Positions 9,746 through 10,156 of a stretch of DNA of 64,000 bases are shown here, piece by piece. The notes under the pieces were generated by a model that was given only the letters and a program-made list of their open reading frames with translations, did no database searches and was not told the DNA's origin. Both the position numbers and the translations under genes were made by a program. Each line of letters starts with the position of its first letter. Position 1 is the first letter of the stretch. This stretch comes from Pontibacter anaerobius (GTDB taxonomy: Bacteria; Bacteroidota; Bacteroidia; Cytophagales; Hymenobacteraceae), in NCBI RefSeq assembly GCF_026241195.1, contig NZ_JAPFQO010000009.1:1-64000 (forward strand). The letters run 5' to 3'.

Positions 9746-9861
9746 ATTGATTTATAAAGAAGCGTGGAGAGACAGGCTCTGTGAAGCGCTAGCAACCTAA
9801 CCAACGGAGTTAAGGTGCTAATTCCTGAGTTCGGCAGGGTGCCGGACGAATATAAATTGAT
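9746..9861 (+). promoter_or_regulatory. SAM-I (S-box) riboswitch
   Basis: The conserved S-box core is readable in order: GGAGAGAC-AGGCTCTG, TGAAGCGCTAGCAACC, then AAGGTGCTAATTCC. The closing helix P1 pairs ATTGATTTATA (9746-9756) with TATAAATTGAT (9851-9861), with two G-U pairs. A late hairpin GTTCGGCA/TGCCGGAC lies at about 9830-9847. S-boxes bind S-adenosylmethionine and repress methionine genes; here metY-metX-hom follow. The first ATG after P1 is only 6 nt away, but it belongs to a small leader ORF and not to metY. Confidence 0.95.
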
Positions 9862-9867
9862 ACGGCC

Positions 9868-10011
9868 ATGAACAAGGGAATCAACTCAACACAGCACGTA
9901 GTATCAGTACCATCGACAGCAGATCTGCCGTCGAATAACTTCTATTTAGCTCCTGCTAAAACTTTAGTCATGCGCACGACCATGTGCGTCATGCGTGGCT
10001 GTTGTTGCTAA
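9868..10011 (+). CDS. 47-residue leader ORF with Met/Cys-rich end
   Basis: The ATG at 9868 opens a frame of 47 codons ending TAA at 10009-10011. The last 13 residues read MRTTMCVMRGCCC: three Met and four Cys, ending in three consecutive Cys codons. The first 34 residues are ordinary and contain no Cys and only the initiator Met. The ORF begins 6 nt after the S-box P1 helix and ends 145 nt before metY. The composition is what a regulatory leader peptide would show, with ribosomes pausing when Met- or Cys-tRNA is short. A shorter translation from the internal ATG at 9970 would give just the 13-residue peptide. Seen: frame and composition. Inferred: regulatory role. I know of no named family. 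Confidence 0.6.
   Translation: MNKGINSTQHVVSVPSTADLPSNNFYLAPAKTLVMRTTMCVMRGCCC
9913..9934 (+). promoter_or_regulatory. Hairpin inside the leader ORF
   Basis: TCGAC-A-GCAGA / TCTGC-C-GTCGA, a near-perfect palindrome with one A-C mismatch. Its arms can also pair with the hairpin at 10051-10067: ATCTGC at 9923-9928 with GCAGAT at 10051-10056, and GCAGAT at 9919-9924 with ATCTGC at 10062-10067. The two regions can therefore form alternative structures. Confidence 0.5.
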
Positions 10012-10039
10012 TCAAGGTATAAAATTCCTGTTTTCATAT

Positions 10040-10079
10040 TTGGCTTAGTGGCAGATCCTGCATCTGCTGCTATGGCCAA
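10040..10079 (+). promoter_or_regulatory. Strong hairpin between leader ORF and metY
   Basis: Paired arms: TTGGC (10040-10044) with GCCAA (10075-10079), TAG with CTA, two wobbles, then GCAGAT (10051-10056) with ATCTGC (10062-10067), loop CCTGC. No T-run follows, so it is not a classical terminator. A role in attenuation, mRNA stability or translation control is possible. Confidence 0.5.
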
Positions 10080-10156
10080 TGTATACCTGAGCAGCCTTTC
10101 CTTTCTGTAAAATATCATATTTAACTTCCTTTAATCATCATTATACCAGTATAACC

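What the first reader, a model, noticed from the sequence alone, without database searches (positions are those of the whole stretch)
9746..10156. SAM-I riboswitch followed directly by an unannotated Met/Cys-rich leader ORF
The S-box at 9746-9861 is not adjacent to metY. Six nt after its P1 helix a 47-codon frame opens and ends MRTTMCVMRGCCC, holding three Met and four Cys codons in the last 13 positions, while the first 34 residues have none beyond the initiator. Two hairpins (9913-9934 inside the ORF, 10040-10079 after it) share complementary GCAGAT/ATCTGC arms and can form exclusive structures. This could combine SAM sensing with ribosome stalling at Met/Cys codons. The 13-residue end alone, from ATG 9970, could be the active leader. 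I know of no named family for this peptide.
Basis: partly seen in the sequence, partly recalled or inferred. Interest (0 to 1): 0.88.

Follow-up and report, generated by a model that had tools for sequence, protein, structure and literature searches.

The report
SAM riboswitch gating poly-cysteine leader peptide
In front of a sulfur-assimilation gene, an RNA switch that senses one sulfur metabolite is followed at once by a tiny gene whose peptide ends in a run of cysteines; related bacteria keep this pairing at many sulfur genes, so it probably makes those genes answer to two sulfur signals at once.

Summary
The S-box (9749-9858, 76.4 bits) and the 47-residue frame 9868-10011 ending MRTTMCVMRGCCC are real, and the frame is conserved. 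Of 226 distinct metY leaders, 195 have an S-box; 120 of these 195 have a uORF starting -15..+40 nt from the S-box end (median +9) with a Cys-rich end, against 23 of 2262 random anchors and 1 of 195 antisense leaders. In Pontibacter the tail is constrained (pN/pS 0.30), the middle is not (0.94). The module also precedes other S-box genes: with metY, the cysH, sulfite reductase, ATP-grasp, antiporter, TonB receptor, peptidase and permease loci have it at 56 of 57 S-boxes; metH, metB/metZ-like, hom and metX at 0 of 34 (grouping made after seeing the data). Most likely it is a two-input leader: SAM limits uORF translation, and the Cys tail (plus Met codons at metY) reports tRNA charging. Both functional steps are inferred. 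Poly-Cys uORFs are known in Actinobacteria, riboswitch-gated uORFs in M. tuberculosis; ten library searches showed me no SAM-I/poly-Cys combination.

The parts
9749..9858 (+). SAM-I riboswitch aptamer (S-box), P1 3' strand of the TATAAA type
   Evidence: RF00162, 76.4 bits, full length 1-108; own model R1 scores the same stretch in L031 at 105.7 bits
9868..10011 (+). leader ORF (uORF), 47 codons plus stop, starting 9 nt after the aptamer
   Evidence: gated Cys-tailed uORF in 120 of 195 metY S-box leaders
9970..10008 (+). Met/Cys-rich tail MRTTMCVMRGCCC, the proposed stalling codons
   Evidence: pN/pS 0.30 over the last 14 alignment columns in 37 Pontibacter leaders
9914..9933 (+). palindromic hairpin inside the uORF; no sign of selection for structure
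   Evidence: position; mean z +0.10 against synonymous recoding
10040..10079 (+). hairpin between uORF stop and metY; no U-run after it, role unknown
   Evidence: position; folds; L031 is not among the terminator-like sites
10012..10156 (+). 145-nt stretch between uORF stop and metY, where the output step should lie
   Evidence: in 122 leaders the stop-to-metY distance is 78-393 nt, median 133
10157..11479 (+). metY, O-acetylhomoserine sulfhydrylase type
   Evidence: TIGR01326 688.2 bits, cut-off 495.1
11487..12551 (+). metX-like homoserine acyltransferase, likely same operon
   Evidence: best NCBIfam matches are MetX models, but below their cut-offs (349.5 v 500; 327.5 v 331)
12532..13791 (+). 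hom, homoserine dehydrogenase, overlapping metX
   Evidence: NF004976 313.9 bits, cut-off 205

Best explanation
A two-input cis-regulatory leader. The SAM-I aptamer directly precedes the start codon of a short leader ORF rather than metY. With low SAM the P1 region can open and ribosomes initiate on the uORF; with high SAM the closed P1 helix, about 9 nt from the uORF AUG, limits initiation (inferred from position). Ribosomes on the uORF read a C-terminal run of Cys codons, with Met codons interspersed at metY; a shortage of charged Cys-tRNA or Met-tRNA stalls them there (inferred from codon content and selection). The stall changes the fate of the stretch before metY, so that metY-metX-hom is expressed when SAM and Cys are both low (inferred). 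The last step is open: an intrinsic terminator is plausible in Rufibacter and in the unnamed family genera g25 and g26; in Pontibacter a Rho-dependent or other RNA-structure route is as likely. Shown: aptamer, conserved frame at fixed distance, selection on the tail, partition of genes. Inferred: SAM effect on the uORF, stalling, direction and output.
For: Gated uORF in 120 of 195 metY S-box leaders v 23 of 2262 random anchors and 1 of 195 antisense; start a median 9 nt after the aptamer. Only 2 of 31 metY leaders without an S-box pass the Cys criterion. Tail pN/pS 0.30, middle 0.94, N-terminus 0.53. 56 of 57 v 0 of 34 S-boxes by downstream gene. In 29 read loci with four Cys codons plus stop in Pontibacter genomes, the 11 with an S-box all have an ATG-started ORF of 27-48 aa, the 18 without have one such ORF. 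Met codons in the last 16: 1.68 at metY (124) v 0.5 elsewhere (30), P 5e-7. uORF S-boxes have terminator-like sites near P1 only at chance (2 of 37 v 1-4 shuffled), direct ones above it (12 of 31 v 2-4).
Against: No expression data at all. 75 of 195 metY S-box leaders lack the gated uORF, including two Pontibacter (L059, which has lost the Cys run, and L060, MRGCFRC without a CC pair). No general RNA switch was found: tail-downstream pairing equals the control tract at metY, tail-body pairing is near zero outside Rufibacter, and RNAalifold finds little in Pontibacter. Terminator-like sites after the uORF are only about 2-3 times shuffled (33 of 124 v 7-20) and absent in the window. metB/metZ-like sulfhydrylases also incorporate sulfur but have no uORF (0 of 8), so the gene partition is not simply 'sulfur-incorporating'.
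Confidence: 0.7

Rival explanations
1. Two independent controls in one leader: the S-box acts on transcription or translation by itself and the uORF is a separate Cys attenuator, with no gating of uORF initiation by the aptamer.
For: Mixed Met/Cys short ORFs occur before some metY genes with no Rfam SAM-I hit in the leader (L379, L382, L386, L387, L391, L392, L211, L291 of nine such loci read; L428, L429 of six more), so a peptide may act alone; S-box-only metY leaders have terminator-like sites in 33 of 70, so the aptamer can act alone.
Against: The near-constant distance of the uORF start to P1 and terminator-like sites at chance level near P1 in uORF S-boxes suggest the uORF start is the platform.
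Confidence: 0.2
2. The Cys-rich peptide itself acts in trans, for instance as a metal- or redox-binding peptide, and its link to S-boxes only reflects sulfur supply.
For: Selection is on the C-terminus and Cys runs could bind metal; a peptide function would also need the frame.
Against: Body unalignable between genera and near-neutral within Pontibacter; Cys number and order vary; different genes of one genome carry different peptides (L322, L323 and the window); the Met content follows the gene.
Confidence: 0.06
3. The UGY tract matters as RNA that pairs with other leader parts, and the frame is incidental.
For: Ten Rufibacter leaders: mean z -2.3 (tail-body) and -3.0 (tail-downstream); single strong cases L322 and L327, and 30 non-metY leaders at -0.80 v -0.04 for a control tract.
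Against: No such excess at metY overall; start, frame and stop are kept and Met codons are enriched, which pairing does not need; first and second codon bases are kept while third bases vary.
Confidence: 0.04

Closest known systems
Poly-Cys leader peptides (uORFs) of Actinobacteria: PMC1262725 (passages); Canestrari 2020, Mol Microbiol 114:93 (title in a reference list; paper not held)
   Same: Short ORF with a run of Cys codons just before the stop, upstream of cysteine/sulfur genes; no obvious terminator in Mycobacterium, as in this window
   Different: No riboswitch in front in the passages seen; the mycobacterial ones are titled leaderless, here the start lies over 100 nt into the RNA behind an aptamer; Met codons here at metY; other phylum
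B12 riboswitch-controlled uORF before ppe2 in M. tuberculosis (PMC11260477, abstract and discussion)
   Same: An aptamer whose direct target is a uORF that relays control to the gene
   Different: There the relay is mainly reinitiation at an AUGA overlap of uORF and gene, with no amino-acid codon run reported in what I read; here the stop is 78-393 nt before metY
Cys-codon uORF before cysS, uORFC-8-2, Rhodobacterales (PMC8632094, passages)
   Same: Tandem Cys codons in a uORF as a Cys-tRNA sensor
   Different: Two Cys codons inside a structured attenuator with U-run terminator; no riboswitch described there
SAM-I riboswitch (S-box, RF00162)
   Same: Aptamer above the gathering score before sulfur/methionine genes
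   Different: A leader ORF follows where a terminator or the gene start would be expected; metH S-boxes of the same genomes have no such ORF (0 of 20)

Membership tests
SAM-I riboswitch (RF00162) | Aptamer sequence and structure above the gathering score | tested here: met
   76.4 v 44.4 bits
SAM-I riboswitch (RF00162) | Binds SAM and switches expression | not testable with these tools
   no binding or expression data
Poly-Cys leader peptide (Actinobacteria type) | Short ORF with Cys codon run near its stop | tested here: met
Poly-Cys leader peptide (Actinobacteria type) | Upstream of cysteine/sulfur assimilation genes | tested here: met
   metY here; cysH 9 of 9 and sulfite reductase 7 of 7 S-boxes in relatives
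Poly-Cys leader peptide (Actinobacteria type) | Leaderless uORF (mRNA begins at the start codon; from the title of Canestrari 2020) | tested here: inconclusive
   An aptamer of about 110 nt precedes the start, which speaks against it, but no transcript start was mapped
Poly-Cys leader peptide (Actinobacteria type) | Expression responds to cysteine | not testable with these tools
   none
Classical trp/his-type transcription attenuator | Regulatory codons of the pathway's amino acid in a leader ORF | tested here: met
   Cys tail, Met enrichment at metY
Classical trp/his-type transcription attenuator | Intrinsic terminator between leader ORF and gene | tested here: inconclusive
   33 of 124 leaders v 7-20 shuffled; 8 of 10 Rufibacter leaders at -51..-53; none in the window
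Classical trp/his-type transcription attenuator | Mutually exclusive antiterminator involving the regulatory codons | tested here: not met
   no excess pairing at metY overall, hairpin 1 not selected; Rufibacter alone is suggestive
Riboswitch-gated uORF with reinitiation (ppe2 type) | uORF directly behind the aptamer | tested here: met
   median 9 nt
Riboswitch-gated uORF with reinitiation (ppe2 type) | Overlapping uORF stop and gene start | tested here: not met
   145 nt apart here; 78-393 nt in 122 leaders

The most novel reading that the evidence does not exclude
A logic layer used across a regulon: in Cytophagales and relatives the output of the SAM-I aptamer is the initiation of a poly-Cys leader peptide, giving a SAM-and-Cys gate at sulfur assimilation and uptake genes, while metH, hom and metB/metZ-like genes keep the aptamer alone; in some lineages without the aptamer at metY, a peptide with about as many Met as Cys codons senses both amino acids by itself.
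Probability: 0.5. Interest if true: 0.87.

Novelty: new variant of a known kind. Interest (0 to 1): 0.78.

Why it matters
If true, a riboswitch controls a tRNA-charging sensor instead of a gene or terminator, so that one RNA combines a metabolite signal with an aminoacyl-tRNA signal, and one regulon uses this at some genes and not at others. The leaders offer many natural variants for direct tests in Bacteroidota, where initiation without Shine-Dalgarno sequences (stated for flavobacteria in PMC9723704, passage) leaves open how a leader peptide is switched. It also points to short genes behind S-boxes that gene finders may miss (I did not check any annotation).

Tried and rejected
Pairing of the Cys tract with downstream RNA: at metY mean z -0.73 against -0.79 for a control tract (115 leaders, 19 with p at most 0.05); in 30 other S-box leaders -0.80 against -0.04, 5 with p at most 0.05. 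Pairing of the tract with the uORF body: mean z -0.38 (123 metY) and +0.12 (30 others); Rufibacter alone -2.3 (10). RNAalifold on 36 Pontibacter leaders: almost nothing. Selection on the in-frame hairpin: rejected. In 16 Rufibacter leaders the downstream stretch folds better than column-shuffled alignments (-1.80 v mean -0.14, sd 0.27, lowest -1.02), but I could not derive a full attenuator. Rho-type evidence is weak: C above G after the stop (0.247 v 0.147), with S-box-only leaders similar (0.249 v 0.173).

S-boxes were first called by a text motif, which misplaced some; they were redone with a covariance model. The motif also missed S-boxes in L381 and L388, which Rfam found. The first random-anchor control (23 of 2262) is about 1%, so the looser Cys criterion is not free of chance hits.

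The mixed Met/Cys peptides without S-box are a lead only. Nine loci without a leader SAM-I hit were read: eight show such a peptide, but several had been chosen because they did, and two of the nine also pass on the antisense strand. Of six later ones (L426, L427, L428, L429, L432, L434; no SAM-I hit) two show one. Under the Cys-only criterion 2 of 31 S-box-less metY leaders pass. The Met-share contrast (0.49 in 11 chosen peptides v 0.22 in 124; P 1e-6) compares sets picked by different criteria.

Gene classes were drawn up, so its Fisher value (3e-24) is descriptive. Its 94 loci are those searches gave as loci plus 40 picked from the list, not all S-boxes; one had no found core and two were unclassified (L407 without, L413 with a uORF).

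Full report
What is there. The window lies in a genome (G000, 4.65 Mb) whose closest named MetY is that of Pontibacter oryzae (96% identity; that search may leave out the nearest records). A SAM-I riboswitch lies at 9749-9858. Nine nt later an ORF of 47 codons opens, 9868-10011, ending MRTTMCVMRGCCC. After 145 nt come metY, a metX-like gene and hom.

Is the frame conserved? I collected metY loci with searches of 59, 80, 118 and 118 genomes (relatives, family, order, phylum), 80 named loci and stretches taken from the same genomes. From L031-L291, after leaving out L077, L078 and L080 (no metY start found) and collapsing identical leaders, 226 distinct leaders remained, of which 195 have an S-box by a covariance model built from 24 aptamers. 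With the start required at -15..+40 nt from the S-box end and at least three Cys with a CC pair in the last 14 codons, 120 of 195 pass (119 ATG, one TTG), against 23 of 2262 random sense anchors and 1 of 195 antisense leaders. With the position free and 12 codons looked at, 124 of 195 pass against 0 of 195 antisense, and the start lies a median 9 nt after the aptamer. Of 31 leaders without S-box 2 pass. Named genera with it include Pontibacter, Rufibacter, Marivirga, Chryseolinea, Imperialibacter and a Bernardetia MAG; the Spirosoma, Larkinella and Algoriphagus leaders with S-box listed lack it. The genus of the window (g1) matches named Pontibacter records and g27 named Rufibacter and Sabulibacter records by contig coordinates; g24-g26 are unnamed, and calling them Hymenobacter-like would be my guess.

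Is it the peptide that is kept? Between genera the body changes beyond recognition while the tail stays. In 37 Pontibacter leaders pN/pS is 0.53 (first 11 columns), 0.94 (middle) and 0.30 (last 14 columns). In the last four codons the first two bases differ in 0-34% of pairs, the third in 47-52%. Tails use TGT 424 and TGC 279 times, while large ORFs of the window use TGC 92 and TGT 29 times.

Which genes? Among 94 S-box loci, one without a found core and two unclassified, 56 of 57 S-boxes before metY, cysH, sulfite reductase, an ATP-grasp protein, an NhaC-type antiporter, a TonB receptor, an M14 peptidase or an amino-acid permease have the gated uORF, and 0 of 34 before metH, metB/metZ-like enzymes, hom or metX (classes drawn up). 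One representative each of ten products was checked with Pfam; metH and metX were named from recalled sequence features. The one metY without is L009, whose tail has lost the Cys run. P1 differs too: TATAAA-type in nearly all of the first set, AGATAAG or AGATGAG in metH and hom, mixed in metB/metZ-like. In this genome metY, sulfite reductase (L322) and cysH (L323) have the uORF and metH (L019) does not. Three loci of genus g25 and one of g26 use GTG starts (L406, L412, L419, L413). Four Cys codons followed by TAA or TAG occur 101 times in 26 Pontibacter genomes against 8 for the reversed pattern; of the 29 of 30 fetched loci that my script could read, 11 have an S-box, all with an ATG-started ORF, and 18 have none, one with such an ORF.

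Met codons. In the last 16 codons metY uORFs average 1.68 Met (124) against 0.5 in 30 other S-box uORFs (P 5e-7); Pontibacter metY 2.68 (37). That fits sensing of Met as well as Cys at metY. In other orders of the class some metY leaders with no Rfam SAM-I hit carry mixed peptides such as MNNKQHISVSQMHRMHHCMCMCCMCM (L379) and MQQHKIYHHSEMHRMHMCCTMCMC (L429); this is a lead, with the selection effects told under Tried and rejected.

How it may work. The near-fixed spacing puts the uORF start beside P1, so SAM binding may limit uORF translation. Terminator-like sites within 120 nt of P1 are at chance for uORF S-boxes (2 of 37 v 1-4 shuffled) but not for direct ones (12 of 31 v 2-4), and S-box-only metY leaders have them in 33 of 70 against 0-10 shuffled. 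Between uORF stop and metY the first 100 nt are more folded than shuffles (mean z -1.4, 124 leaders), and terminator-like sites occur in 33 of 124 against 7-20 shuffled, at -51..-53 from metY in 8 of 10 Rufibacter leaders and near there in several of g25 and g26, not in the window. Non-metY uORF leaders have them at +130..+420 in 19 of 37 against 5-11 shuffled. Rufibacter leaders also have a hairpin in each individual fold before metY and strong pairing of the Cys tract on both sides, which would suit a switch. Other clades do not show this, so I claim no general scheme.

What is known. Ten searches of the paper library (listings) and passages or sections of six papers gave: Cys-run leader peptides before cys operons of Actinobacteria without obvious terminators (PMC1262725, passages); a mention of translation attenuation of cysteine genes in M. 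smegmatis and the Canestrari title (PMC13236596, passages); a Cys-codon uORF before cysS (PMC8632094, passages); B12-riboswitch-linked uORFs (PMC11260477, abstract and discussion); clues to leader-peptide attenuation before amino-acid operons in Flavobacterium psychrophilum, with details in a supplement I did not see (PMC9723704, passages); and short ORFs reminiscent of leader peptides in long 5' UTRs of Bacteroides thetaiotaomicron (PMC7366714, passages). None of the text I saw describes a SAM-I aptamer followed by a poly-Cys uORF. Most subscription papers and bioRxiv are outside that library.

Verdict. It is a new variant of leader-peptide control: a SAM-I riboswitch with a poly-Cys uORF where its platform should be. 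Conservation, selection on the tail and the partition of genes are shown; SAM gating, stalling, direction and the output step are inferred.

Noticed in passing
L322, L346, L351 (sulfite reductase leaders); L340, L342, L347, L352 (TonB receptor or antiporter leaders): A second Cys-rich short ORF follows the first one behind the same S-box; in the three sulfite reductase leaders it ends GMRAC, in the others it is rich in MR repeats before the Cys.
   Followed up: partly
L379, L382, L386, L387, L391, L392, L428, L429, L211, L291: Short ORFs with about equal Met and Cys numbers before metY genes that have no Rfam SAM-I hit in the leader.
   Followed up: partly
L007, L008, L013, L019, L020, L021 (metH leaders): metH S-boxes have another P1 type and a long hairpin between aptamer and gene that ends close to the metH start codon.
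   Followed up: no
L059 (G007; same place as the named record L163, Pontibacter harenae): A Pontibacter metY leader that keeps S-box and uORF start but has lost the Cys run; one search also counts one in-frame stop in the open frame around this metY match.
   Followed up: no
window 6389-6604 (+) and 9222-9419 (-): Two inverted copies of a similar stretch: translated ORFs of the list share long runs (GFGSLQPGRARL and neighbours), one just upstream of the S-box.
   Followed up: no
L392 540-646 (-): SAM-II riboswitch match (49.2 bits) near a distant metY homologue.
   Followed up: no
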